Positions 14,713 through 28,129 of a stretch of 64,000 bases of DNA are shown one piece after another (the first letter of the stretch is position 1; the number at the start of each line of letters is the position of its first letter). The notes under the pieces were generated by a model that had not been told where the DNA came from, ran no database searches, and saw only the letters and a program-made list of their open reading frames with translations. The translations under genes were made by a program, and so were the position numbers. The stretch covers positions 239,198-303,197 of the forward strand of contig NZ_QREM01000008.1 in the NCBI RefSeq assembly GCF_003353015.1, written 5' to 3'. The DNA is from Xanthomonas arboricola. Lineage in GTDB: Bacteria; Pseudomonadota; Gammaproteobacteria; Xanthomonadales; Xanthomonadaceae.

Positions 14713-17082
14713 TTATTGCCAGTTGACGTTGACCGACACACCCACGATACGCGGTTCGTTGTACACCGCCGCCATGTAGTTTTCGATCACGCCCTTGACG
14801 TTCTTCTCGTTGGTGATGTTGCGCGCAAACGCCGCCACTTCCCATGCCCCATAGCCGCCGGTGTAACCGAGCTTGAGGCCGCCTTCAACGTTGCCGTTGG
14901 CACGGAACTCGGTGGAGTCGTACAGCACGAAGCTGGTTTCGCCCTGCTTGTTCCAGTCGGTGGAGACGAAGAAGGCGCCATCGGTGCCCACCGGAATGTC
15001 GTAGCGCGCCGCCAGGTTGAGGTTGTACTTGGGCGCGTTGGGCAACGGGTTGCCGTCGATCTGCGCAAAGGTGTTGGCACCGACGCGGATGGTCGGGTCG
15101 TTGACCGTGCACACCACCACGCCATTGAGCGCGCAGGCCTGCGCGTAGACGCGATCGTCGTGGATTTCGCTATGCAGCAGGCTCAGGCCGGCGGTCAGCG
15201 ACAGGTTGGAGATCGGGCGCCAGTCCAGATCCGCTTCCAGACCGTAGGCCTTGGCCTTGTCGGCATTGAACAGCACGCCGTTGCCGTCCGAATCGTTGCC
15301 GTTGAGCTGGATGTCGTCCACCGTGTAGGTGAAGCCGCTGACATTCAGACGCAGGCGATTGTCGAACAGGCTGCTCTTGATGCCGGCTTCCCAGGACAGG
15401 ATGGTTTCCGAATCGGCAGTGGTGAAATCCGAATTGAACACCGCGCTGCGGCCCTGGATGGTCGGGCCGCGGAAGCCGCGTGCCACGCGCGCGTAGACGC
15501 TCAGCTCCGGATTGATTTCATACATCGCGCTGAGGTCCCAGCTGGGCTGGGTGTCGGACATGCGCACATCGCGACGGCCGCGATAGGTCACCGCGCCCGC
15601 GGCGGTATCGGCGGTCTTGAGCAGGCGGGTTTCCTTGGTGTCCCTGGTCTGGCGGATACCGGCGGTCAAGGTGAGCGTATCGGTGGCCTTGTAGCTGAGC
15701 TGCCCGAAGCCGGCCCAGGAGGTGTTGGTGTTGCGCAGGCGCACCCAGTTGTTCGGGTTGCGCGCGGCGGTGCGCAGGAAATATGCACGCTGGTAGAAAT
15801 CGGTGGTGTCGCGCCCGTCGAAGTAGAACGCACCGACCTGCCACTGCAATGCGTCGTCGCCTTCGCTGGCCAGACGCAGTTCCTGGGTGTACTGGTCCAG
15901 GTCGCGGATCTGCCCCATCGACTGGCCGAAGCCGTTCGGCACGCCGTTGACCGGGTAGTTGGCCGCCGCACCGCCATCGGTGTCGCCACGGCTGTAGCCG
16001 GAGGTGGTTTCGTAGGCGGTGATGGAGGTCAGCGCCACGCCGCCGAAGTCGTAGATCGCCTTGATCGAGCCGCCGTCGGTCTTGTAGGCCTGCGGGTTGT
16101 CATTGGCTTCGTCGTAGGCCACGCGATCGCGCGGCACGTCGACCTTGTCGCTGCCGCGCGTCACTGCGTTGCGCAGGAACAACGTGGAGGTGCCGTCGTA
16201 GTCGCGCGTATGCAGCGAGCCCAGCAGCGAGAATGCGTCGTTGGGCTTGAGCAGCAGCTGCAGGCGCGCATTGCGATCGCTGTAGCCGCCCATCGCGTCC
16301 TCGCGCGGCGTGCGCGTGCCGTCGGCACTGCTGCCGGCAAAGGTGTTGTCCACCCAATCGTCGCGGTGTTGGTACAAGGCAGAGACGCGGAAGGACAGCA
16401 CGTCGTTGATCGGGCCACCGAAGCCGCCATCCAGCGACAACGTGTTGTAGCTGCCGTAGCTGGCATCGACGCGGCCGGTATAGGTCTCGCTGGGCTTGAC
16501 CGTGTCGAACTTGACGATGCCGGCGGTGGTGTTGCGGCCGAACAAGGTGCCCTGCGGGCCGCGCAGCACCTCGACCTGGTCCACGTCGTAGACCGGGTTG
16601 GACTTGAGCACCACGTGTTCCAGTACCACGTCGTCCTGGATGATGGACACCGGCTGCGAGGCGCCGAGATAGAAATCGATGTTGCCCAGGCCACGGATAT
16701 AGAAGCGCGGGAAGATGCGCCCGGTGGTGGTCTCGGCGTAGAAGCCCGGCACGCGGCCGGACAGCGCCAGCAGCGTGTCGTCGCCACCGGCGGTGAACTC
16801 GCGCATTGCTGCGCCCTGCACCACGCCCACCGACACCGGCACCTCCTGCAGGTTCTGCTCGCGGTGCTCGGCAGTGACGGTGACCGCATCCAGCGCGGTC
16901 GGGCTGCCCTCGCCCTGGCGCGTCGGCACCTGCTGCGCAGCGGCCGCTGCCGCCAGCGAGGCAAGCAGCAGGCCGGCGCAGGCACGCGCCAGCGGCGTGC
17001 GCTGCAATGCCACGCGACGGCCTGCAGGGGCGTGTGTGGCGGCGGGCGTCAGCGACGCGGAGACAGACGAAGACAACGACAT
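14713..17082 (-). CDS. TonB-dependent outer-membrane receptor
   Basis: A 789-residue outer-membrane active transporter. A signal peptide ends near residue 38 (ASLAAAAAAQ), followed by a TonB-box-like segment ALDAVTVTA, the plug domain (about 50-165, with FYIRGLGNIDF and VEVLRGPQGTLFGRNTTAG) and a 22-strand beta-barrel ending in the aromatic-rich VNVNWQ. The start at MSLSSS was chosen as the head of the signal peptide. The plug and barrel resemble xenobiotic/plant-compound receptors numerous in Xanthomonas; the substrate cannot be read from sequence. It stands alone, flanked by elements A and B. Confidence 0.93.
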   Translation of the reverse strand: MSLSSSVSASLTPAATHAPAGRRVALQRTPLARACAGLLLASLAAAAAAQQVPTRQGEGSPTALDAVTVTAEHREQNLQEVPVSVGVVQGAAMREFTAGGDDTLLALSGRVPGFYAETTTGRIFPRFYIRGLGNIDFYLGASQPVSIIQDDVVLEHVVLKSNPVYDVDQVEVLRGPQGTLFGRNTTAGIVKFDTVKPSETYTGRVDASYGSYNTLSLDGGFGGPINDVLSFRVSALYQHRDDWVDNTFAGSSADGTRTPREDAMGGYSDRNARLQLLLKPNDAFSLLGSLHTRDYDGTSTLFLRNAVTRGSDKVDVPRDRVAYDEANDNPQAYKTDGGSIKAIYDFGGVALTSITAYETTSGYSRGDTDGGAAANYPVNGVPNGFGQSMGQIRDLDQYTQELRLASEGDDALQWQVGAFYFDGRDTTDFYQRAYFLRTAARNPNNWVRLRNTNTSWAGFGQLSYKATDTLTLTAGIRQTRDTKETRLLKTADTAAGAVTYRGRRDVRMSDTQPSWDLSAMYEINPELSVYARVARGFRGPTIQGRSAVFNSDFTTADSETILSWEAGIKSSLFDNRLRLNVSGFTYTVDDIQLNGNDSDGNGVLFNADKAKAYGLEADLDWRPISNLSLTAGLSLLHSEIHDDRVYAQACALNGVVVCTVNDPTIRVGANTFAQIDGNPLPNAPKYNLNLAARYDIPVGTDGAFFVSTDWNKQGETSFVLYDSTEFRANGNVEGGLKLGYTGGYGAWEVAAFARNITNEKNVKGVIENYMAAVYNEPRIVGVSVNVNWQ

Positions 17083-17473
17083 GCGGGATGATCCTTGGGT
17101 AGGTGACGCGAGGGGTGAGACAGGGGCGAGCGTGGCGATCGACCTGACTGCGCGGCGATCAGGCGCGCGCGGCCGGTGCTCGGAACGGGTGTAGCGCGCG
17201 TACACGCCGGCTCCTCCCCGCCGTCCGCGCCGCTCGCCACGTGGTGTCGGCCACTCCAGCGTCCGTCGGCACCGGGCATGCCGGCCGACGGCGCGGGGTG
17301 GCGCCGCGCGCACGATATGTCAGCAATGTTGCAGCTCTATGGCAAGCGTGCCGCCACGCACATGGCGGCCGCATCCGCGGTGGCGCTTTCGACGCATGCG
17401 GCGTCGCCAAGCCATCGCCATCGGCGCGCGGCAGGCCGCCACCGCTGGCCGACCCTGCGCGCGCAACCACGCG
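17083..17473. other. Leader and promoter region of the TonB receptor, 391 bases
   Basis: Contains element B (17150-17249), 68-167 bases upstream of the receptor start on the minus strand. The rest is very GC-rich with no recognisable gene. The stressosome operon ends at 17474 facing this gap. Confidence 0.5.
17150..17249 (-). repeat. Element B, RNA-like repeat in the TonB receptor leader
   Basis: Homologous to element A. Conserved blocks (plus strand) are GCTCGGAAC at 17178, CTCCTCCCCGCCGTCCGC at 17211-17228 and CACGTGGTGTC at 17239. The hairpin GTGTA (17189-17193)/TACAC (17201-17205) replaces the TGGAC/GTCCA pair of A. On the minus strand an outer helix GGAGC...GTTCC can form around it, matching GGAATC...GGTTCC in A. 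It may be a cis-regulatory RNA of the receptor or a mobile palindromic element. Confidence 0.6.
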
Positions 17474-19438
17474 TCAGGCGCGGGCGACCAGCACGCTGCT
17501 GTCAAGCATCTGCCCGACCATGTTCAACAGATCGTTGAGGCTGAAGGGCTTGGGCAGCAGCGCCATGCCGTCGGCCAGGAATTCCTGGCGGGTGGCGGCG
17601 TTTTCGGCGTAGCCGGTGATGAACAGGATCGGCAGGCCGGGGCGCAGCGCGCGCGCCACGTCGGCCATGTCGCGCCCGTTCATGCCGGGCAGGCCGACGT
17701 CGGACACCACCAGGTCGATCTCCACGCCGGCCCGCAACTGGGCCAGCGCGCCGTTGGCGTCTTCGGCTTCGACCACGTGGTAGCCGGCATCGCTGAGCAC
17801 CTCGCTCACCATGATGCGTACCACGTCGGTATCGTCCACCAGCAGGATGCGCTCGCTGCGTACACGCGGCGAATTCGGTGCCGGTGCCGGCGGCACGGCG
17901 CTGGCAGTGAGCCCGCGCGGCAGCAGCAAGGCCACCGTGGTCCCGCGCCCCACTGCGCTGGCGATGCGCGCGGTGCCGCCGGACTGGCGCGCAAAGCCGT
18001 AGGTCATCGACAAGCCCAGGCCGGTGCCCTCGCCGATCGGCTTGGTGGTGAAGAACGGCTCGAAGACCTGATTGAGGATGGCCGGCTCGATGCCGCTGCC
18101 GTTGTCGATGACGTTCACCGCCACGTAGTCGCCATCGTCCAGTTCCGGGTCGCCGTGCGCGGTATGGGCCACGCTCTGGATGCGGATGGTGCCCCTGCCC
18201 TTCAACGCGTCGCGCGCATTGATCACCAGGTTGAGCACCACGTTTTCGAGCTGGTTGGCATCAGCCACCGCCACCAGCGGCGTGTCCGCCAGGTCCAGCT
18301 CCAGCACGATGTTCTCGCCGATCGAGCGGCGCAGCATGTCTTCCAGCGAGCGTACGCGCGCGTTGATGTCGAAGGCCTGCGCATCCAGCGACTGCTTGCG
18401 TGCGAAGGCAAGCATGCGCTGGGTCAGCGCGGCGGCGCGATGCGCCGAGCCGGTGGCGATCTCGGCCAGCCGCGGCACGCGCTCGATGCGATTGGACTCG
18501 ACCGCCAGCTGGATCATGTCCAGGCCGGAAATGATGCTGGTCAGCAGGTTGTTGAAGTCGTGCGCGATGCCGCCGGTGAGCTTGCCCAGCGCTTCCATCT
18601 TCTGCGCCTGCAGCAGCTGGATCTCGGTGCGCTGGCGCTCGGCGATCTGGTGGGCCAGTTCGGTGGTGGCGGTATCCAGTTCCTGGCGCTGCTCGCGCTC
18701 GCGCAGGCGCTGCTCGGTGACATCCTCGACCAGCAGCAGGCCCAGGTCCGGCTCGCGATACGGCGACACGCGCCACTCGGTTTCGCATACCTTGCCCTCG
18801 CGCAGGATCGACAAGGCGCCGCTCCAGCGCTCGCGCCGCGCCAGCGCGTCGGTCAGCGCCTGCACGGTGGCGGCCTGGTCCACGCCGGGCACGGCAAGCG
18901 CCTGGCCAGGCGTGGCGGCGCCGATCAGGCGCTGGAACGCGGCATTGGCGTCATGCGCGCGCAGCCCGGCATCGACCACCGCGATCGGCGCACTGATGTG
19001 CTCGAAGATCTCGCGGAAGCGGGCCTCGCTGATGCGCAGGGCCTCCTCGGCCTGGCGCGCGCGCAGCAGGGTGCGCAAGGTGGCGACCAGCACGCTGGGG
19101 TCGACCGGGTGAATCAGGTAGGCGTCGGCGCCGGCTTCCAGGCCGGTGATCATGTCGCCGGTGGCGATCGAGGCCGCCGACACGTGCACCACCGGCAGCA
19201 ACGCAGTGCGCGGCTCGGCGCGTAGCGTGCGCACGATGTCGAAGCCGCTCATGTCCGGCAGATTGACGTCCAGCACCACCGCGGAAAACGCCTGCTCGGC
19301 CAGCCTGGCCAGGCCGTCGGTGCCGGTGCCCGCTTCCTCGACCACGAACTGATGATGTTCGAGCACGCGCCGCACCGAATAACGCGTCACCGCGTTGTCG
19401 TCCACGACCAGAATGTGAGGCTTACTGCCCAAGTGCAT
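17474..19438 (-). CDS. Hybrid sensor kinase REC-PAS-HisKA-HATPase-REC
   Basis: A 654-residue soluble hybrid kinase ending the stressosome-type operon. The first receiver carries Asp57 (VVLDVNLPDMSG), then a PAS domain (about 140-250), His293 in GGIAHDFNNLLTSI, ATPase boxes (VINARDAL, DNGSGI, GEGTGLGLSMTYG) and a terminal receiver with Asp580 (VVSDVGLPGMNG). The ATG at 19438 overlaps the preceding kinase by 17 bases. The paired receivers suggest it receives phosphate from the upstream kinase and passes it to an unseen output. No DNA-binding or cyclic-di-GMP domain is present. Confidence 0.92.
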   Translation of the reverse strand: MHLGSKPHILVVDDNAVTRYSVRRVLEHHQFVVEEAGTGTDGLARLAEQAFSAVVLDVNLPDMSGFDIVRTLRAEPRTALLPVVHVSAASIATGDMITGLEAGADAYLIHPVDPSVLVATLRTLLRARQAEEALRISEARFREIFEHISAPIAVVDAGLRAHDANAAFQRLIGAATPGQALAVPGVDQAATVQALTDALARRERWSGALSILREGKVCETEWRVSPYREPDLGLLLVEDVTEQRLREREQRQELDTATTELAHQIAERQRTEIQLLQAQKMEALGKLTGGIAHDFNNLLTSIISGLDMIQLAVESNRIERVPRLAEIATGSAHRAAALTQRMLAFARKQSLDAQAFDINARVRSLEDMLRRSIGENIVLELDLADTPLVAVADANQLENVVLNLVINARDALKGRGTIRIQSVAHTAHGDPELDDGDYVAVNVIDNGSGIEPAILNQVFEPFFTTKPIGEGTGLGLSMTYGFARQSGGTARIASAVGRGTTVALLLPRGLTASAVPPAPAPNSPRVRSERILLVDDTDVVRIMVSEVLSDAGYHVVEAEDANGALAQLRAGVEIDLVVSDVGLPGMNGRDMADVARALRPGLPILFITGYAENAATRQEFLADGMALLPKPFSLNDLLNMVGQMLDSSVLVARA

Positions 19439-20297
19439 CCTCCGCCGCCAGCGTGACCGGCAGCACCACGAAAAATTCCGAGCCCTGCCCGACCACGCTG
19501 TTGATGCCCACCCTGCCGCCCAGCAACTCGGCGAAACGCTTGCAGATCGACAGCCCCAGGCCGGTGCCGGTGAGGCGTTTCTGCAACGGCGAATCCACCT
19601 GTACAAAATCCTCGAACAAGGCGTCGTGAAGCTCTGCCGGAATACCGATGCCGGTGTCCTGCACGCCGAAGCGCACATGGCTCTCGCCTTCCAGCTGCGC
19701 GAACACGCGCACATGGCCTTGCGGGGTGAACTTGAGCGCGTTGGAAATGAAGTTGCGCAGGATCTGCGCCAGCTTCTTGTCGTCGGTATAGAGCATCGGC
19801 AGCACCGGCGGATCCTCGAAGATCAAGGTGGTGCCGCTGACATCGGTGAGCGGGCGGAACATGCCGCGCAAAGCCGCAAACAGGTCCATCAGGTCGAACC
19901 AGCCCGGCGAGATGGTGATGCGCCCGGCTTCGATCTTGGCCAGGTCCAGCAGGTCGTCGACCATCTCGGTGAGCTCGCGCGCCGAGGCGCTGACAAAGCG
20001 CACCTGCTTGGACTGCTCGGCCGTGAGCGGCCCGTCCATGCCGTCCTCGAGCAGCCGCGTGATGCTCAGGATCGAACTGAGCGGGGTGCGGAACTCATGG
20101 CTCATGTACGACAGGAACCGGCTCTTGAGCTCGGATACATCGCGCAGCTGCTCGGCCTGTTGATCGAGCTCGGCATACAGCGCCAGCACGCCCTGGTTGG
20201 TTTCTTCCAGCTCTTCGCGCAGGGCCTGGTTCTGCTGCCGCAGCGCGTCGAGTTCGGCCAGCGGATCGATGGGCGATGTCGCCCCGGAAGCATTCAT
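19422..20297 (-). CDS. Histidine kinase with N-terminal coiled coil
   Basis: A 291-residue soluble kinase. Residues 14-55 form a coiled coil; His67 lies in YMSHEFRTPLSSI; ATPase boxes are NFISNALKF, DTGIGI and LTGTGLGLSICKR. There is no sensor domain, so its input is likely protein contact with the stressosome switch proteins, replacing the sigma-B output of Bacillus. It overlaps the upstream ATPase-phosphatase gene by ATGA and the downstream hybrid kinase by 17 bases. Confidence 0.9.
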   Translation of the reverse strand: MNASGATSPIDPLAELDALRQQNQALREELEETNQGVLALYAELDQQAEQLRDVSELKSRFLSYMSHEFRTPLSSILSITRLLEDGMDGPLTAEQSKQVRFVSASARELTEMVDDLLDLAKIEAGRITISPGWFDLMDLFAALRGMFRPLTDVSGTTLIFEDPPVLPMLYTDDKKLAQILRNFISNALKFTPQGHVRVFAQLEGESHVRFGVQDTGIGIPAELHDALFEDFVQVDSPLQKRLTGTGLGLSICKRFAELLGGRVGINSVVGQGSEFFVVLPVTLAAEDALGQ

Positions 20298-21310
20298 TGC
20301 AGGCCTCCCAGCCGCATGACAAACACGCCGCAGTCGTCGCGGCCCCGCGTGTAATCGCGCAGCAGCACCGCCGCAATCAGACGCGGATGGCGCGACAGTA
20401 GACCCGGATGATCGCGCAGGTTCCAGCGTGATTGCAGGCCATCGCTGTGCATGACCAGCAGCTTGCCGGCCGCGTCCGGAAAATCGAACGGTTGCGCCTT
20501 GCGGAACTGCACCCCGACGATGCCCGGATGCGAGGGCATGCCACGCACGCCGTCGCCATCGCACAGCGATGCGACGATATTGCCCACGCCGGCAAAGCGT
20601 ACCCGGCCGGTGCTGCTGTCGAATTGCATCACCGCCGCCGCGCCGCCGCGGGTGCCGGACATGCCGGCATGCAGCTGCGCGATGCGCTCGCCCGGCTCGC
20701 CGCTGGCCGTGGCTGCAGCGCGCGCGCCGGCGTCGGCAGCGTCGGCGGCGCCCGGACCATGACCCAGGCCATCGATCACGGTGACGGTCGCCCGCTGCTC
20801 GCCGATGGCCAGATGCCAGGCATCGCCGCATACCGTTTCGTTGTGCAGCGGCAGGCGGATGGCGCCGTACGCCAGGTCCAGGTCCAGGTCGGCGCGTTGC
20901 TGCGCAAACAGGCGTGCCATCACGACCGCGCCCTTGGCATCGGAATAGGCGTCCAGTACCTGCGCCTGGCGCTGGATCGCGCCCAGTCCGGTGCCCGGCG
21001 TCCCGGCGGTGGAATAGCCGTCGCGCAGGCCGTCCACGAGTGCGAAGCCGGGGCCGCCGTCGATGGCGCAGATCTCCACGCCCATGCCCTGGCGGCCGGC
21101 CACCGTGGCCAGCTGCAGGTAACCGCCATGTCCATGCTTGACCACGTTGGTGGCAAGCTCGGTGGCCACCAGCGCCACCCGCCCGCAGGCCGCCTCGTCG
21201 AAACCCAGTGCCTGTGCCAACCCGGCCGCCTCGCGACGCGCCTGCCCGACCTGGCTGGTTTCGTCGACGCGAAACGCGCGCGTGACCTCGCCGGCAAGCG
21301 TTACTTCCAT
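20294..21310 (-). CDS. ATPase-PP2C fusion, RsbW/RsbT-like plus RsbX-like phosphatase
   Basis: A 338-residue two-domain protein. Residues 1-140 form a GHKL ATPase of the anti-sigma kinase type (N-box VATELATNVVKHG, G1 IDGGPGFA, GTGLGAIQR). Residues about 145-338 form a SpoIIE/PP2C phosphatase with metal-ligand motifs CGDAW, VIDGLGHG, MHSDGLQ and RDDCGVFV. In Bacillus, RsbX resets the stressosome by dephosphorylating RsbS and RsbR; that role is inferred here from position. It overlaps rsbT by 10 bases and the next kinase by 4. The fusion of kinase-type and phosphatase domains is notable. Confidence 0.88.
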   Translation of the reverse strand: MEVTLAGEVTRAFRVDETSQVGQARREAAGLAQALGFDEAACGRVALVATELATNVVKHGHGGYLQLATVAGRQGMGVEICAIDGGPGFALVDGLRDGYSTAGTPGTGLGAIQRQAQVLDAYSDAKGAVVMARLFAQQRADLDLDLAYGAIRLPLHNETVCGDAWHLAIGEQRATVTVIDGLGHGPGAADAADAGARAAATASGEPGERIAQLHAGMSGTRGGAAAVMQFDSSTGRVRFAGVGNIVASLCDGDGVRGMPSHPGIVGVQFRKAQPFDFPDAAGKLLVMHSDGLQSRWNLRDHPGLLSRHPRLIAAVLLRDYTRGRDDCGVFVMRLGGLQ

Positions 21311-21696
21311 TTGGTGATGGTGATGCGCGTGCCCTTGCCGGCAGCGGTGTCCAGCACGAAATCGTCCACCAGCCGCCGGCTGCCGGACAGGCCCAGTCCC
21401 AGCCCGCTGCCGGAGGTCCAGCCATCGGTGAGCGCCAGGTCCAGGTCGGGTATGCCGGGGCCTTCGTCGCGGAAGGTCAGCTGCACGCCCTTGCGGATGC
21501 CGCTTTCCACCAGCGCCCAATCCATCTCGCCGCCGCCGCCATAGATCACGGTGTTGCGCGCCAGTTCGCTGGCTGCAGTGACCAGCTTGGTCTGGTCGAC
21601 CAGGCGCAGGCCGCACTGCACCACCAGCTTGCGCACCGTCTGCCGGGCCAGCACCACATCCTGTTCGGTGCGCACCGATTGCGAACCGGTGGTCAT
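21301..21696 (-). CDS. rsbT: RsbT-type switch serine kinase of the stressosome
   Basis: A 131-residue GHKL kinase of the RsbT family. The ATP site is complete: N-box AASELARNTVIYGGGG, G1 RDEGPGIPD and G2 GSGLGLGLSGSRRLVDDF. In the known system RsbT phosphorylates RsbS and RsbR under stress, leaves the complex and activates a partner. The ATG overlaps the rsbS stop (ATGA). With no RsbU or sigma-B nearby, the partner is probably the downstream phosphatase or kinases. Confidence 0.93.
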   Translation of the reverse strand: MTTGSQSVRTEQDVVLARQTVRKLVVQCGLRLVDQTKLVTAASELARNTVIYGGGGEMDWALVESGIRKGVQLTFRDEGPGIPDLDLALTDGWTSGSGLGLGLSGSRRLVDDFVLDTAAGKGTRITITKWK

Positions 21697-22055
21697 GACG
21701 TGCGATCAGGCTGCTGCAACAGGCGCATGCCGCGTTCGACATCGAGCGCGGTGCGCACCGATGGCAGGGTCAGCCCGAGCTCGACCAGCGTGATCGCCAC
21801 GGCCGGCTGCATGCCCACCACCACGGTCCTGGCATCCATGATCGCCGCCAGCCCGGAAATGGTGCTGATCATGCGGCCGATGAACGAGTCGACGATGTCC
21901 AGTGCGGAAATGTCGATCAGCACGCCGCGCGCGGAGGTGGCGCTGATCCTTTCCGACAGGTCTTCCTGCAGCGTCATCGCCAACTGGTCGTGCATGTCCA
22001 CCTGGATGGTGACCAGCAGCAGGTCGCCCATCCGCAGGATCGGGATGCGCTCCAT
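21693..22055 (-). CDS. rsbS: RsbS-type STAS core protein of the stressosome
   Basis: A 120-residue single STAS domain. The phosphorylatable serine of Bacillus RsbS (Ser59, VDSF/IDSF motif) is conserved as Ser57 in ALDIVDSFIGR. PILRMGDLLLVTIQVDM and GMQPAVAITLVELG are also close to RsbS. It builds the stressosome core with RsbR and holds RsbT. It starts one base after rsbR ends. Confidence 0.94.
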   Translation of the reverse strand: MERIPILRMGDLLLVTIQVDMHDQLAMTLQEDLSERISATSARGVLIDISALDIVDSFIGRMISTISGLAAIMDARTVVVGMQPAVAITLVELGLTLPSVRTALDVERGMRLLQQPDRTS

Positions 22056-22056
22056 G

Positions 22057-22899
22057 TCAGCCCGCCTTGGTCACGGTCATGCCGATGCGCTTGAGCGCCA
22101 GCGCCAGCGCATCGGACAGGTTGGCCTTGGTGACGATGCCCTGCAGGTCCAGCCCCAGGTGCACGATGGTCTGCGCGATCTGCGGGCGCACGCCGCTGAT
22201 GATGGCATCGGCGCCCATCAGGCGGATCGCGGTGACGGTCTTGAGCAGGTGCTGCGCGACCAGGGTGTCCACCGTGGGCACGCCGGTGATGTCGATGATG
22301 GCGATTTCCGAGCCGGTATCGACGATGCGCTGCAGCAGCGACTCCATCACCACCTGGGTGCGCTGTGAATCCAGCGTGCCGATCATCGGCAGTGCCAATA
22401 CACCGTCCCACAGTTTGACCACCGGGGTGGACAGCTCCAGCATTTCTTCCTGCTGGCGCACGATGATGTCTTCGCGGGTCTTCTGGAACGCCTTGACGGT
22501 GTACAGGCCCAGGCGATCCAGCAGCTCGGACAGCGCCCACAGCTGCTGGCCCAGATCCTCCGGCGCATCGGCATACTCGCGCTGCACCAGCGCAAACAGC
22601 ACGCGCTTGAGCGAGAAGATGAAGTTGGCGGTTTCCTGCGAATCGAAGCCACGGGTGGCGCGGTCGCGCGACAGGGTTTCCAGGAAGCGACGCACCTCGC
22701 TCCAGTCGGCGCTGTCCAGGCTGCTGCCGCCGTCCTTCAGCGAGGCGACCAGCAGATGCAGGAAGTCCGCACTCTGGGTTTCGATGTCCTGCCGGGAAAT
22801 CCGTCCATCGCTGCCCAGGCTGGAGCCCAGCCATGCCGCCAACAACGCAGCTTCCTGGCCACGAATTGCGTCGATCGAGCGCTGCTGCAATGCCACCAT
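22057..22899 (-). CDS. rsbR: RsbR-type stressosome sensor/scaffold with C-terminal STAS
   Basis: A 280-residue co-antagonist. The N-terminal helical domain (about 1-140, RsbRD_N-like) is the presumed sensor and protrudes from the stressosome. The linker and STAS domain occupy about 150-275. The two phosphorylation sites of Bacillus RsbRA map to Ser178 (GTLDSQR, Thr in Bacillus) and Thr212 (PTVDTLVAQH). The ATG at 22899 follows a GGCGGG-like site; an in-frame TTG five codons earlier has no site. It is the first gene of the operon, after an 801-base gap. Confidence 0.92.
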   Translation of the reverse strand: MVALQQRSIDAIRGQEAALLAAWLGSSLGSDGRISRQDIETQSADFLHLLVASLKDGGSSLDSADWSEVRRFLETLSRDRATRGFDSQETANFIFSLKRVLFALVQREYADAPEDLGQQLWALSELLDRLGLYTVKAFQKTREDIIVRQQEEMLELSTPVVKLWDGVLALPMIGTLDSQRTQVVMESLLQRIVDTGSEIAIIDITGVPTVDTLVAQHLLKTVTAIRLMGADAIISGVRPQIAQTIVHLGLDLQGIVTKANLSDALALALKRIGMTVTKAG

Positions 22900-23700
22900 G
22901 AGATCACCCGCCAAGAGTTAGAAGAGAGAAGGCTGGGCATGCGGGGCGATTGCGCCCCCCTTGTCTGGCGCGGCGCCCCCACGCCGAAGCGCTGCAGAGT
23001 AAAGCAATTCAGTTTCGGCAACCAGCGACGAACCTGTAGCGGTCAGAGGAACGTCCGTACGGAGTTTGACATTGCGGCGCACGCGGCGAACGTGAGCGCG
23101 ACCACGCCTGGGCAGATGCGCTTGCCGCCGGCCCGCCATCCTGCTCTCGGGCTTGACGGCGCCGGTTACAGACTGCCGCCGCACCGGCCGTGATGCGGTC
23201 ACCGACCGCTGCGCAACGGTGGCCCGACTTGCGGGAAAACCGCCTGACACCGGCCCGGACCGATCGCGACGCCCATCCCATGGCGGCGGACGCGCTCGAT
23301 GTGCCGGCAGGCCGGTTTGCCCACGCCCGGCGCCGCATGCACGCGCCGGGTCACGCCGCTGCGGCGTCGGTCTGCGGTGCGTACCGAGGGCATCGCCTGC
23401 CGATCGGCAATAGCAATACCGGGAGCGTGGTGAAGCATCCGGGCGGGACCGTGTGGCGGCATGGATGCCGCTCAAGGTCCCACGCCGGCACCCGCGCAAG
23501 CACCACCGATTGCTATCGGTTGCGGAAAAAAAATGAGAAAACCCAGGTGGGCTGCACGTTCTTCCGAGCGTCACCATTCCTGGCGACATACCAGCAGTTG
23601 GCACGCAAACCACGCATGCCAATCCCGAATGCCCGATCCCCGATCGCGGCGGCAGCGGCGACCGCATCAGCAGCCGCTGCGCGCGAGCTTGCTCGCCGCC
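22900..23700. other. Long intergenic region upstream of rsbR, 801 bases
   Basis: No recognisable gene. It holds a 10-base palindrome TCCGTACGGA (23054-23063), an inverted repeat ACCGAT-TGCT-ATCGGT (23505-23520) next to an A-tract, and a degenerate C-rich heptamer cluster (23624-23645). The rsbR promoter should lie in the left part on the minus strand, but I cannot place it. Open frames here lack coding character. Confidence 0.5.
23624..23645. repeat. Degenerate heptamer cluster (three C-run units)
   Basis: Three units close to CCCGAAT/GCCCGAT/CCCCGAT, a diverged member of the CCCGATT family, lying 56 bases downstream of the TPR-protein stop on the minus strand. Confidence 0.6.
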
Positions 23701-26025
23701 CTACAGCCCGTAGCGCTCCACCGCCTCCAGGTGCGGGCGCGGATCCTGGTCGCAGGCCTCGGCCAGGCGCAGCCAGCACATCGGGTGCGCCCACTGCGCG
23801 GTGGCGGCCAGCAGGACGCGATGCAGTTCCAGCGGCGCCGCCGCTTCCGGCAGCGCCACGGTGAACAGCACGCCCGGCAGACCCGTGCCTGCATCTTCCG
23901 GGTCGAATGCGTCCGCGTGTGCCGGATCGACCACGCGGTAATCGTCGCGGCTGTGCAACCACAGCTTCCAGCCGCGCGCTTCGATGTCCTGCCGCAAGGC
24001 CTCGATCGCCTGCTCGCCAGGATGCACGCCATCCACCAGCCAGCTGCTGCCGTAACCACCCGCCTCCAGCACATGCACCTGCGCATAGGTCGGCACGAAC
24101 CGCTCGCGCTCGGCCTCGTCGTCCGGTGGCGGATACAGCAACTCCGCATCGAAGACCACCCAGTCGCCGACATGCTGGCGCCGATGCGCCGGTGCATTTT
24201 CGACGATACGCGCGGTGACCGGGCCGGTGCGCCGTGCGTAGTACTCGGCTGCCTCACCGTCGTCCACGCAACGCACGATCACCCAGCCCCAGGTTTCTTC
24301 GACCACGCCACGGGTGCCGCTCAGCTCCATGCCGAGCGCCAGCGCCGAGGCGCGCACCGCGTCCCACTGCTGCGCCGCACTGGCCGCGGTCATCCGATCC
24401 CAATGCGCCGAGCGCGGCTCTTCCATCAACTCGGTCAGCTGGCGATACACCTCGGCAGCCTCGGCGAAGCGGCCGGTGTCGAGATACATGCGCGCCAGCA
24501 AGCCGCGCGCGCCATGCGAACCGGGCGACAATTCCAGCAGCGCGGTGCAGGCCTGCTCCAGCGCCGGCCAATCGGCCAGCCGCTGGGCCAGCTGCGCCTC
24601 GCACCACAGCGCCGCCACCGGCACCAGCGGGCGATACAGCTGCGCCAGCCGGCGCAGGCCGGCTTCGTCGCCACCGCCCAGCAACAGGTTCATCAGCCGG
24701 AAGGTCGGGCTGGTTTCGCGGTCGGCATGCCGCTGCACGAATGCCCACAGCAGCGCGATCGCCTCGTCGTCGGCCGCACACGCGCTCAATGCCGACGCCG
24801 TGGTGTCCACCAACTCGGCGTCGTCCGGTCGCTCGGCCACTGCCTGCAGCAACCACTGCGCCTCGCGCTCGGGATTCCGTGCCACGTCTTCGGCCTGCGC
24901 ATCCAGCCACTGCAGCAACTGCCCGGCCGGCACCGGTGCCGGCTCGCCCGCCGGTGCGGTCTCGATGCGCTCGGCCAGGCCGTCCAGCAGTTGGGTGGCG
25001 CCACGGTCCTGGCGCAGCTTGGGCACATGCGCGCGCGCAAGCGCCAGGTGCCGGCGTGCCGTCCACACCGCACCACGCTGCAACGCCAGCTCTATCGCCA
25101 TCTCGGCCGCGTCGATCAGGATGCGGTGCGCGCCGACCTGCGCGTAATGATCGAGCATCACCTGCAGGCGGCTGCCCAGATCCCAGGTGTTGCGCTCGGG
25201 CTGGCGCGATACCAGCACCACCACCGCACGCAACCAGTGCAGGCGGTAGCGCGGCGCCACCTCGCGCCACGGCAGGAAGGCCTCCAGTGCTTCGTCGTCG
25301 CGATTCAACAGCGCCAGGGCACGGGCTTTCTGCAGGCGCCGCGGCTGACTGCAGTTGGCCCATTCGGCCCCCTCGCGCGCGGCCTCGCGTTCGCGCTGCT
25401 CGATCAGCGCCAGCGCCTCCTGCGCGCGGCCCAGCGAGAGCAGGATCGAGATGCGCATGTCCGGCACGCCGTCGTAGATCTGGCCGCCGTGCGCAACGAT
25501 GGTCTGCGACTGCTGGTCCAGGTAACTCAATGCCGCCTCGCCGCGTCCATCGTCGAGCAGGGCATCGGCTTTTTCGCAGCTCAGGCACTGGTAGCACGAC
25601 CAGCTCGGATCGATGCGGCCCAGCGTCTCCTCGCACACCTCGATGCGTTCTTCCACCCAGCCCGGACCGTCGATGTTGGCGTAGCAGGCGGCCAGATCCT
25701 GGGTCACGCACACCGACTGCGGGCACTCCACCGCATCGGCGCGGTGCGCGCGTTCGAAGAGCGTCACTGCATCGCTGAGCGCACGCTCGCCTTCGCACAG
25801 GTTGCCGACCCGGTTGCGCATTTCCCAATGCCCGACGAACACCTCCAGCCACGGATTGGCCAGCGTCTTGCCCAGCGCACGCGCCTCGGGCAGCAGTGCT
25901 TCGGCGCGTTCGATCTGCAGGTCGCAGATATGGTCGGTCAGGCGGGTCAGCAGCTGCGCATTCTGCGGCTGCCCGGCTTCGCCCAGATCCTCCTGCAGCT
26001 TCTCCACCCAGTTCCAGATTTCCAT
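23701..26025 (-). CDS. Large TPR-like protein paired with an HSP90-family protein
   Basis: A 774-residue soluble protein, mostly helical repeats resembling TPR from about 30 to 560 (for example FAEAAEVYRQLTELMEE, HGARGLLARMYLDTGRF), then a mixed alpha/beta C-terminal region from about 575. The N-terminal part has a cysteine cluster: C101, C106, C114, C131 and a CYQCLSC triplet at 144-150, suggesting metal or redox chemistry. It starts 24 bases after the HSP90-family gene, so the two are co-transcribed. TPR proteins are the classic partners of eukaryotic Hsp90; a co-chaperone or client-selection role is inference. I do not recognise a named family. Confidence 0.8.
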   Translation of the reverse strand: MEIWNWVEKLQEDLGEAGQPQNAQLLTRLTDHICDLQIERAEALLPEARALGKTLANPWLEVFVGHWEMRNRVGNLCEGERALSDAVTLFERAHRADAVECPQSVCVTQDLAACYANIDGPGWVEERIEVCEETLGRIDPSWSCYQCLSCEKADALLDDGRGEAALSYLDQQSQTIVAHGGQIYDGVPDMRISILLSLGRAQEALALIEQREREAAREGAEWANCSQPRRLQKARALALLNRDDEALEAFLPWREVAPRYRLHWLRAVVVLVSRQPERNTWDLGSRLQVMLDHYAQVGAHRILIDAAEMAIELALQRGAVWTARRHLALARAHVPKLRQDRGATQLLDGLAERIETAPAGEPAPVPAGQLLQWLDAQAEDVARNPEREAQWLLQAVAERPDDAELVDTTASALSACAADDEAIALLWAFVQRHADRETSPTFRLMNLLLGGGDEAGLRRLAQLYRPLVPVAALWCEAQLAQRLADWPALEQACTALLELSPGSHGARGLLARMYLDTGRFAEAAEVYRQLTELMEEPRSAHWDRMTAASAAQQWDAVRASALALGMELSGTRGVVEETWGWVIVRCVDDGEAAEYYARRTGPVTARIVENAPAHRRQHVGDWVVFDAELLYPPPDDEAERERFVPTYAQVHVLEAGGYGSSWLVDGVHPGEQAIEALRQDIEARGWKLWLHSRDDYRVVDPAHADAFDPEDAGTGLPGVLFTVALPEAAAPLELHRVLLAATAQWAHPMCWLRLAEACDQDPRPHLEAVERYGL

Positions 26026-26049
26026 CGTCTCGCTCCTTCGATGCGGCGC

Positions 26050-27918
26050 TCAGCGCGCCAGCAATTGGGTCACGGCCTGGGCGAGATCGCCGAAGGCCCG
26101 ATTCAGATCCGATCCACCCGCTGCGTCGGCACCGGGCTGCGGCTGGCTGCGCCCCTGCGCCGACACGATCACCTTGAGCGAGCGCAGCAGCCGCGCCGCC
26201 ACCGCTGCCTGCGGATTACCGGCGCGCTGCGCCGCCAGCAACGCCTGCAAGGCCGCGTTGTCGAGATTCAGATACAACCGTTGGGTCTGCCGCGCCTGGA
26301 TCCCCGCCGTGAACTGCCGGGCCAGCCGCAACGCAGCGGTGGACACGCGCTTGTCGTTCTCGTCCTGCTCCAGCCGGCGCTTGAGTTCGGCCTCGCGGTC
26401 GGGCACCACCACCAACGGCAGTGCCTCCGGGCTGAAACGCGCCGGCACCAATGCTTCGCCATCGCCCAGGTGCTGTTCCAGCCAGGCCAGTTCGTCGGCC
26501 GGCAGCGTGTCCAGCTGGAACAACTGCCGGTTGCCCTGCTCGGTACCCAGCTCGACCAGACGCACGCCCTTGGCCTGCGCCCAGCGGCGCAGGAACGGCA
26601 CCACCGCATAGCGGTTTCCGTAGGCCACCGGCACGCCCATCGCGCGGAACAGCATTTCCTCGAAGCCGCTGTCGCTGTCCAGGATCACATGTACCGCGCC
26701 GCGTGCCGGCAATTGCTGTGCGGGCAGGTCGCCCTGCGAGGTCGGCACCCGCACGTGTTCCATCAGCAGCGCGAACAAACGCTCGTCGCACAGCGCCGCG
26801 CCCAGCAATGCCTCGTTGTGGCGCAGCAGGATGCGTCGCCAGGCTTCCGGCTGCTGACGCGCCACATCGGCCAGGCCCTGCACCAGCGCTTCGGACAGCG
26901 CGTGCTGCACCGCCGTGTAGGTGGCATCGCGTTGCAGATCCTCGCGGCTGGCGGTGGGCGTCAGGCGATTGGACTCGATCACGCCGCCGATAAAGCCCGC
27001 CCACGGCGGCAATAGTTCGCGTGCGTTGTCGTCCAGCAGCATGCCGCGCAGGAACACCGACAGGTTGCGGTTGTCGCTGGTGCCGTAAGTGGCCCCGTCC
27101 TGCACCCACAGCAGGCCGACCGCGTCGCTGCCCTCTTCCGCGCGCACCGGCATGCAGCACAAGGGCTCGAAGTTGCGCTCGAAACGCGCGGCAAACTCGC
27201 GTTGGCGCCGCCAGGCCTGCACCGGATGCAACGGCAGCGCATCGTGCATGCGCCACGGCGGCGGTTCGGGATTGATCGCCTGGGTATCGCCGCCGATCCA
27301 GATCGGCTCGCGCAACAGCGCGCAATAACGCGACAGGATCTCGCGCAGCCGTGCGTCCTGGGCCAACGGCAGATAGTCCTCGTGCAGTTCCAGCACCACT
27401 TCGGTGCCGACCTGCGCGCGTGCCGGGACCGGGCTCACCGTGTACTGCTCGGCATTGCTGGAGATGTAGCAATGCCCCAGCGTCGGGCTCTGGTAGGAGG
27501 TGGTGCGCACGGTGACGCGGCGCGCCAGCACGAAGGCCGACAAAAAGCCCAGCCCGAACATGCCGATCAGGCCGCTGTCCTCATGCCCGCCCTGACGCAG
27601 GCCGCGCGTATACCCCACGCCGACCGTGGCCAGGTAATCGTGGATTTCCTGCTGGGTCAGCCCGGCGCCGGTATCGATGATGCGCACGATGCCCTGGGCC
27701 GCGTCGGCATGCACCTCGATGCGCGATTGGCCTTGCCAGTCGGGTTGTTCCAGACGGCGACGCAGGATCGAGTCGTGCGCGTTCTGCACCAGCTCGCGCA
27801 GCGCGACCACCGGCGTGGAATACAGATGCTTGCTGAGCACGGACATCAGTCCGTTGAGATCGACGCCTGCACGGCGGATCTGGGAGGCGTCCGTCGCCTC
27901 GGAAGTGTGATCTTGCAT
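26050..27918 (-). CDS. HSP90-family ATPase (HtpG paralogue)
   Basis: A 622-residue HSP90-family chaperone. The GHKL ATP site is intact: LRELVQNAHDSI (N-box), IDTGAGLTQQEI and GLIGMFGLGFLSAF. The middle domain carries the ATPase arginine in TASREDLQRD (SRExLQ in HtpG). A C-terminal domain resembling the HtpG dimerisation region covers about 520-622. It diverges clearly from canonical HtpG. The start at MQDHTS is preceded by non-coding frame. The first gene of a two-gene operon with the TPR-like protein; specialised client folding is likely but the client is unknown. Confidence 0.88.
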   Translation of the reverse strand: MQDHTSEATDASQIRRAGVDLNGLMSVLSKHLYSTPVVALRELVQNAHDSILRRRLEQPDWQGQSRIEVHADAAQGIVRIIDTGAGLTQQEIHDYLATVGVGYTRGLRQGGHEDSGLIGMFGLGFLSAFVLARRVTVRTTSYQSPTLGHCYISSNAEQYTVSPVPARAQVGTEVVLELHEDYLPLAQDARLREILSRYCALLREPIWIGGDTQAINPEPPPWRMHDALPLHPVQAWRRQREFAARFERNFEPLCCMPVRAEEGSDAVGLLWVQDGATYGTSDNRNLSVFLRGMLLDDNARELLPPWAGFIGGVIESNRLTPTASREDLQRDATYTAVQHALSEALVQGLADVARQQPEAWRRILLRHNEALLGAALCDERLFALLMEHVRVPTSQGDLPAQQLPARGAVHVILDSDSGFEEMLFRAMGVPVAYGNRYAVVPFLRRWAQAKGVRLVELGTEQGNRQLFQLDTLPADELAWLEQHLGDGEALVPARFSPEALPLVVVPDREAELKRRLEQDENDKRVSTAALRLARQFTAGIQARQTQRLYLNLDNAALQALLAAQRAGNPQAAVAARLLRSLKVIVSAQGRSQPQPGADAAGGSDLNRAFGDLAQAVTQLLAR

Positions 27919-28129
27919 GATCGTTGGTCGTTTCCTTGGCAGCCACGCCCATCCTCGGACGCGCCTTCCTGGGTGGCAGTGCGAGCCGAACAGGATAGCC
28001 GCAAGCCACGCTGCACGCACGCACGTCACACTCTGGCGGCGTCCCGGCACGTGGCTGACCGCCCACGCACGCCACGTCGGAAACGACACGCCACGGCCTG
28101 CGTCGACGCAGGCCGTGGCGCACACCGGC

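What the first reader, a model, noticed from the sequence alone, without database searches (positions are those of the whole stretch)
17474..22899. Six-gene stressosome operon wired to histidine kinases instead of sigma-B
The sequence shows RsbR, RsbS, RsbT, an ATPase-PP2C protein, a sensorless histidine kinase and a REC-PAS-kinase-REC hybrid in one chain with overlaps of 4-17 bases (one base gap after rsbR). Ser57 of RsbS and Ser178/Thr212 of RsbR match the Bacillus phosphorylation sites, and RsbT has a complete ATP site, so the core should work. There is no sigma-B, RsbU, RsbV or RsbW. The output must run through the two kinases, making a Ser/Thr-to-His-Asp relay in a plant pathogen.
Basis: partly seen in the sequence, partly recalled or inferred. 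Interest (0 to 1): 0.8.

Follow-up and report, generated by a model that had tools for sequence, protein, structure and literature searches.

The report
Stressosome operon with two histidine kinases
A stress-sensing protein complex known from Bacillus sits here beside two phosphorelay kinases, as it does in many other bacteria, and the first kinase carries a short, almost unchanging helix that is probably where the stress signal enters.

Summary
Six genes (rsbR, rsbS, rsbT, ATPase-PP2C, histidine kinase, REC-PAS-kinase-REC) lie in one minus-strand chain with the stated overlaps and phosphosites. A stressosome wired to a two-component system is a published kind (PMC9237108), so the headline is not new. 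The same six-gene order recurs in 50 of 80 related loci, in Pseudomonas and relatives of Xanthomonas.

What appears new is how the signal may leave. The 'sensorless' kinase begins with a helix, consensus ELxETNxGVxALYAEL, its most conserved 16-residue stretch. A search led by this helix found it in 34 of 1088 genomes from four phyla, each time just downstream of gene 4 of such an operon. It precedes histidine kinases (27) or PP2C phosphatases (7). In 14 loci a full-length RsbT-type domain is fused in front of it. Best reading: the helix is the entry port through which RsbT, or gene 4's ATPase, controls the output, in place of the RsbU N-domain. Binding is untested. A literal phosphate relay from RsbT to the kinases has no support here.

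The parts
22057..22899 (-). rsbR: RsbRD_N sensor-side domain + STAS; Ser178 and Thr212 at the phosphosite positions
   Evidence: the in-frame TTG start at 22914 is the alternative
21693..22055 (-). rsbS: single STAS domain, Ser57 at the phosphosite
21301..21696 (-). rsbT: GHKL Ser/Thr kinase with intact ATP boxes
20294..21310 (-). gene 4: second GHKL ATPase domain (HATPase_c_2) fused to a PP2C phosphatase domain, a two-domain RsbX-like protein
   Evidence: PP2C half aligns with solved 3zt9 and RsbX 3w40
19422..20297 (-). histidine kinase without a recognised sensor domain (His67; HisKA + HATPase_c)
20166..20213 (-). residues 29-44 of that kinase: conserved coupling helix ELEETNQGVLALYAEL
17474..19438 (-). 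hybrid kinase REC-PAS-HisKA-HATPase_c-REC (Asp57, His293, Asp580); its first REC is the likely target of the upstream kinase

Best explanation
This is an RsbRST stressosome whose output is a two-component relay. RsbR and RsbS hold the kinase RsbT. On a signal RsbT phosphorylates RsbR/RsbS and is freed (inferred from the Bacillus/Listeria/Vibrio family; the residues are shown here). The PP2C half of gene 4 resets them (inferred). Freed RsbT, or less likely the ATPase half of gene 4, then engages the N-terminal helix ELxETNxGVxALYAEL of the histidine kinase and changes its coiled coil, switching kinase activity (inferred; this is the new part). The kinase phosphorylates the first REC of the next gene, a REC-PAS-kinase-REC protein (inferred from the constant REC neighbour). 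The final effector lies outside the operon and is unknown. The helix is an exchangeable input port that serves histidine kinases in most loci seen and PP2C phosphatases in some actinobacterial ones, doing the work that RsbU_N does in Bacillus.
For: Core identity and sites. Helix-led search: 34 of 1088 genomes (13/299, 10/296, 8/247, 3/246). In all 33 survey loci beyond the window gene 4 is on the same strand and the helix starts 44-669 bases after its stop. R, S and T are also there in all but L160, cut by its contig end. In the window's phylum sample the 13 genomes with a close RsbT (E <= 1.1e-36) are exactly the 13 with the helix; the other 22 of 35 RsbT-like genomes have none. Genus: the same 32 of 35. 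The helix is the most conserved 16-residue window of the aligned helix-plus-kinase segment over 17 representatives under 65% identity (0.86 against a mean of 0.52 after the helix). It stands before two unrelated catalytic families, histidine kinases (27 of 34) and PP2C (7 of 34, all seven Pfam-confirmed). In 14 loci a full-length RsbT-type domain is fused just before it: RsbT profile 78-124 bits against 42-66 for the gene-4 ATPase profile in every one; 10 of 14 match simple patterns of all three ATP boxes, four miss one. The 14 form one clade, support 0.97. All 99 helix-kinase loci have a REC: starting within 700 bases behind it in another frame in 97, in the same protein in 2. RsbT activating RsbU through its linker helix is published.
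Against: The helix tracks the two-domain gene 4 as tightly as RsbT: of the 8 control loci without the helix, 5 have a PP2C-only gene 4 (two of these with a second RsbT-type gene before it), 2 have the two-domain form and 1 shows none, so gene 4's ATPase may be the partner. The helix profile was built from RsbT neighbours, and a control linker from the hybrid kinase also hit only ORFs that carry the hybrid's REC (58 of 58), so lack of off-target hits is not remarkable by itself; the reach over four phyla and two enzyme families is. That control saw only the loci held, not whole genomes. A conserved coiled coil could serve dimerisation only. Four of the 80 RsbT loci have no helix protein beside them, though each of those genomes has one elsewhere.
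Confidence: 0.6

Rival explanations
1. The ATPase half of gene 4, not RsbT, is the helix partner: gene 4 is a kinase-phosphatase that senses the state of the RsbS/RsbR STAS proteins and clamps or frees the histidine kinase.
For: Of 110 helix loci, 105 have both gene-4 domains in one frame; the five others are L160 (contig starts inside gene 4), L074 (gene 4 split between frames) and the lone helix proteins L132-L134. PP2C-only operons L145, L146, L149, L151, L152 have no helix. Its ATP boxes are kept.
Against: Where a full-length ATPase domain is fused in front of the helix it is RsbT-type, not gene-4-type, in 14 of 14 (78-124 against 42-66 bits); two-domain gene 4 also occurs without the helix (L147, L148).
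Confidence: 0.25
2. Literal phosphorylation: RsbT phosphorylates the histidine kinase or the REC proteins on Ser/Thr, as an option, PMC9237108 suggest.
For: [quoted passage not shown] The helix has an invariant Thr.
Against: The Thr lies in a predicted coiled coil beside an invariant Asn (by reading), and the best studied RsbT output, RsbU, is activated by binding.
Confidence: 0.15
3. The kinases are an independent two-component system that merely shares the operon.
For: Both have complete kinase domains and need no stressosome to work in principle.
Against: 50 of 80 loci keep the full order; joint presence and absence in the genus; RsbT-type domain fused to the kinase in 14 loci.
Confidence: 0.1
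4. The helix is an ordinary dimerisation coil (S-helix) with no partner.
For: It lies where S-helices lie, between an input and a catalytic domain (PMC1592074); Pfam sees only generic coiled-coil similarity below cut-off.
Against: It lacks the ERT signature described for S-helices (by reading), is more conserved than the His box, and in the four surveys was found only beside gene 4 of such operons.
Confidence: 0.2

Closest known systems
Vibrio vulnificus stressosome RSTX-D1-D2 (PMC9237108, PMC10436020, PMC10014275; passages seen)
   Same: RsbR-S-T, a PP2C, then two-component proteins, no SigB; co-transcription shown there
   Different: Globin RsbR and single-domain RsbX there; here RsbRD_N, two-domain gene 4 and the helix. 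The unnamed control locus L145, whose layout resembles it, has no helix; the Vibrio proteins themselves were not searched
Bacillus subtilis rsbRSTUVW-sigB-rsbX (from PMC9237108 passages and recall)
   Same: RsbR, RsbS, RsbT core with matching phosphosites
   Different: Output there is RsbU (RsbU_N-PP2C), RsbV, RsbW, SigB; none of these is in the operon here
RsbU linker activation by RsbT (PMC12143880; abstract, outline and passages seen)
   Same: A linker helix before a dimeric catalytic domain takes the RsbT signal; the authors suggest the same for kinases and diguanylate cyclases that carry RsbU_N
   Different: No RsbU_N found here; a different, highly conserved helix, with or without a fused RsbT-type domain
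Signaling helix (S-helix, PMC1592074; passages seen)
   Same: Single helix between input and catalytic domains of kinases, PP2C and others
   Different: The ERT signature is absent; TN-G-V--LY-E- instead
Xanthomonas campestris RsbR phosphorylation (Musa 2013; not seen, cited in PMC9237108)
   Same: Said to report that RsbR of a relative is made and phosphorylated in the cell
   Different: What it says on the kinases is not known to me

Membership tests
RsbRST stressosome module | RsbR with C-terminal STAS and N-terminal sensor-side domain | tested here: met
   RsbRD_N 78 bits, STAS 48.6 bits
RsbRST stressosome module | RsbS single STAS with the conserved phosphoserine | tested here: met
   E 6e-31 to solved RsbS; Ser57 aligned
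RsbRST stressosome module | RsbT GHKL kinase with intact ATP boxes | tested here: met
RsbRST stressosome module | Assembly into a megadalton RsbR-RsbS-RsbT particle | not testable with these tools
   needs purified protein
SigB general stress operon | RsbU (RsbU_N + PP2C), RsbV, RsbW and SigB in the operon | tested here: not met
RSTX module with two-component output | PP2C directly after rsbT and two-component genes after it | tested here: met
RSTX module with two-component output | Single-domain RsbX (as PMC9237108 describes for globin-type modules) | tested here: not met
   Gene 4 has an added HATPase_c_2 domain
RsbU_N-type RsbT target | RsbU_N domain at the N-terminus of the output protein | tested here: not met
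   No RsbU_N match listed for either kinase with E up to 10 allowed (HMMER's filters drop most very weak matches)
S-helix | ERT signature in the central heptad (as stated in PMC1592074) | tested here: not met
   By reading the helix against the paper's description; no S-helix profile was run

The most novel reading that the evidence does not exclude
The ETNxGVxALYAEL helix is an undescribed, exchangeable docking and transmission element through which stressosome GHKL kinases (RsbT or the gene-4 ATPase) control unrelated outputs, histidine kinases and PP2C phosphatases, in at least four phyla. It arose in, or passed through, a protein in which an RsbT-type domain was fused to the output, and lineages such as this one lost the fused domain so that free RsbT acts in trans.
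Probability: 0.5. Interest if true: 0.75.

Novelty: new variant of a known kind. Interest (0 to 1): 0.6.

Why it matters
How a stressosome without RsbU and sigma-B passes its signal on is an open question in the Vibrio work, which found no RsbU_N domain in the majority of the downstream proteins it considered (PMC9237108). A 16-residue helix tied to these operons over four phyla, and naturally fused to an RsbT-type domain in 14 loci, names the contact to test. It also gives a sequence tag for finding stressosome outputs encoded away from the operon, as in three Streptomyces genomes (L064, L067, L095).

Tried and rejected
The claim that the wiring to kinases is new was rejected on the literature. 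The claim that the genome lacks RsbU/V/W-type proteins was rejected: a PP2C, an RsbW-like ATPase and a STAS gene lie together on contig C20. A TonB-dependent receptor downstream was considered as a member of the operon; a homologue lies downstream in the 4 Xanthomonas loci L017-L020 (close by in three, about 1.9 kb away in L019) and in none of the other 88 loci scanned, so it was left out. A control profile from the hybrid kinase's own linker hit 58 ORFs, all carrying REC1, and none elsewhere in the loci held, so it did not show the helix to be unusually specific; this is counted against the specificity argument. A promoter/terminator scan gave no promoter-like site and 6 terminator-like sites (2.5 expected), five of the six inside genes, and was not used. 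Structure prediction of a natural RsbT-helix-kinase fusion (alignment A2) could not be run. Searches in print for the helix letters (ALYAEL, TNRGV, ETNQGV) gave 3 papers, unrelated by title. No study of this operon in Xanthomonas appeared in the listings (10 of 11 shown; 20 of 24 shown). The Pane-Farre 2005 and 2017 papers were seen only as citations, so they may already list this operon.

Bias to note: the 80 loci are the best 80 of 417 confirmed relatives of RsbT, from a capped list of candidates, and the helix profile A1 came from them. Conservation values and the 110-locus counts come from sequences picked by the helix profile. L044 (gene 4 and kinase in one frame, other genes split) and L074 (gene 4 split) are broken or misassembled loci. 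L153 has RsbR on the opposite strand and a broken RsbS. The histidine-kinase profile used wrongly included the PP2C locus L086 and part of the helix; kinase or PP2C was therefore read from Pfam where scanned and from high profile scores otherwise.
Full report
What is there. Six genes run on the minus strand from 22899 to 17474. Pfam gives RsbRD_N + STAS, STAS, HATPase_c, HATPase_c_2 + SpoIIE, HisKA + HATPase_c, and REC-PAS-HisKA-HATPase_c-REC. The closest named relatives are Xanthomonas, with RsbT 95% identical in L017-L020. Against solved structures, RsbS matches a solved RsbS at E 6e-31 and RsbR matches solved RsbR chains at E about 2e-32 to 3e-31 (Listeria and Vibrio as their sources are recalled). 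Ser57 of RsbS and Ser178/Thr212 of RsbR are at those numbers and in the aligned phosphosite columns. RsbT and the ATPase half of gene 4 both keep the N, G1 and G2 boxes. The PP2C half of gene 4 aligns with a solved SpoIIE domain (3zt9) and with RsbX (3w40), and five Asp positions that I recall as metal-binding in PP2C are among the columns invariant over 15 orthologues.

RSTX modules followed by histidine kinases and REC proteins are published, with eleven downstream architectures listed for globin-type RsbR (PMC9237108, passages). In Vibrio vulnificus the downstream two-component genes are co-transcribed and mutants exist (PMC10436020 and PMC10014275, passages). PMC9237108 also says that RsbR of Xanthomonas campestris is expressed and phosphorylated (the source paper was not seen). 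The genome has no SigB-type factor over the cut-off, but it does have a PDC/Cache-HAMP-PP2C gene, an ATPase and a STAS gene in a row on contig C20.

How common it is. Of the best 80 of 417 RsbT relatives in named genomes, 50 have the full six-gene order with the same domains, in Xanthomonas, Pseudoxanthomonas, Stenotrophomonas, Dyella, Stutzerimonas and, mostly, Pseudomonas. The other loci (beta-proteobacterial, planctomycete, acidobacterial, actinobacterial and a few broken ones) keep R-S-T-gene 4, with L044 and L074 disrupted, and vary after it. In the five actinobacterial loci scanned, the gene after the kinase is REC-PP2C (L070, L080, L084, L088, L089). In the genus, 32 of 35 genomes have RsbT and the same 32 have the kinase helix; two genomes of 100% completeness and one of 81% lack both.

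The helix. The kinase has no recognised sensor domain and no RsbU_N, but residues 29-44 read ELEETNQGVLALYAEL. Helix-bearing proteins lie behind gene 4 in 76 of the 80 loci (in L044 in one frame with it). In 17 representatives below 65% identity this is the best conserved 16-residue window of the aligned helix-plus-kinase segment, majority-residue fraction 0.86 against a mean of 0.52 after the helix; the twelve best windows all overlap the helix and none is the His box. TN-G is present in 110 of 110 helix proteins found in all loci held, TN-GV in 108; these were selected by the helix profile.

Helix-first surveys. Profile A1 (18 rows) was run over whole genomes in six frames: 13 of 299 genomes of the window's phylum, 10 of 296 of the phylum of L089 (Kitasatospora), 8 of 247 of the phylum of L091 (Granulicella), 3 of 246 of the phylum of L036 (a planctomycete MAG). 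That is 34 of 1088. Four of these (the window, L089, L091, L036) supplied or equal a profile row; without them it is 30 of 1084. All 34 neighbourhoods were read. In the 33 besides the window, gene 4 lies on the same strand and the helix starts 44-669 bases after its stop. RsbR, RsbS and RsbT are there too in all but L160, where the contig begins inside gene 4; in L153 RsbR is on the other strand and RsbS is broken. The output behind the helix is a histidine kinase in 27 and a SpoIIE-type PP2C in 7 (L138-L144). The four RsbT loci without a neighbouring helix (L035, L064, L067, L095) lie in genomes that each hold exactly one helix match elsewhere: in three a lone helix-PP2C (L132-L134), in one a second complete operon (L135).

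Controls and results against. In the same 299 genomes, 35 have an RsbT-like match at E <= 1e-6; the 13 best (E <= 1.1e-36) are the 13 helix genomes, the other 22 have no helix. Eight of those 22 were read. Five have a PP2C-only gene 4 (L149 and L151 with a second RsbT-type gene before it), two (L147, L148) have the two-domain gene 4 but no helix, and one (L150) shows only RsbT and a kinase. L145, laid out like the published Vibrio locus, has an HK-REC-REC protein without the helix. So the helix marks one branch of stressosomes, with the two-domain gene 4, and gene 4 is as good a candidate partner as RsbT on co-occurrence alone. A control profile from the hybrid kinase's linker also hit only REC-bearing ORFs of its own kind (58 of 58).

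Fusions. In 14 loci (L091, L125, L127, L129-L131, L153, L154, L156-L161) a full-length RsbT-type domain is fused before the helix. In all 14 it scores higher with the RsbT profile (78-124 bits) than with the gene-4 ATPase profile (42-66 bits); 10 match simple patterns of the N, G1 and G2 boxes, while L153 misses G2 and L156, L160 and L161 miss the N pattern (six aligned by eye). The 14 domains form one clade, support 0.97. They fall with the 31 free RsbT and apart from the 27 gene-4 domains, but the node that joins them with RsbT has support of only 0.385. Actinobacterial helix kinases often carry a weak remnant of it (13-30 bits in ten of the RsbT-seeded loci and in L136, L137), and 16 loci have two helix copies in tandem. 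Loss of the fused domain would leave what is seen here: a kinase that starts with the helix. The direction of change is inference.

Mechanism. Shown: gene content, order, residues, the helix, its distribution, the fusions, and that a REC follows the helix kinase in 99 of 99 loci (starting within 700 bases in another frame in 97, in the same protein in 2). Inferred: RsbT release, RsbT or gene 4 acting on the helix, kinase to REC1 transfer, and an effector outside the operon. The nearest experimental precedent is RsbT binding the RsbU linker and making it a coiled coil (PMC12143880, abstract, outline and passages). That paper extends the idea to kinases with RsbU_N, which was not found here.

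Novelty. Stressosome to two-component wiring: known. This six-gene arrangement: likely visible to earlier surveys that I could not read. The helix as a shared stressosome-output element: not found in print (open-licence papers only; text, not figures). I rate it a new variant of a known kind.

Noticed in passing
window 14713-17313 (-): TonB-dependent receptor directly downstream of the hybrid kinase; a homologue lies downstream in Xanthomonas loci L017-L020 (about 1.9 kb away in L019) but in none of the other 88 loci scanned.
   Followed up: partly
L103 (own genome, contig C20 352500-358000): A second partner-switching set: PDC/Cache-HAMP-PP2C, RsbW-like ATPase and STAS protein in a row.
   Followed up: partly
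L132, L133, L134: Lone helix-PP2C phosphatases away from the RSTX operon of the same Streptomyces genome: likely stressosome outputs in trans.
   Followed up: partly
G325 (genus survey), contig C1 4006759-4007152: RsbT match falls in two pieces; sequencing error or a decayed gene.
   Followed up: no
L153 3517-5076: RsbR on the strand opposite to RsbT and RsbS broken between strands: inversion or misassembly.
   Followed up: no
window 23701-27996 (-): Upstream of the operon on the same strand, a TPR-like protein (weak, below cut-off) and an HSP90-like ATPase.
   Followed up: no
L149 6674-7605 and L151 5699-6628: Two RsbT-type genes in tandem in stressosome operons that lack the helix.
   Followed up: no
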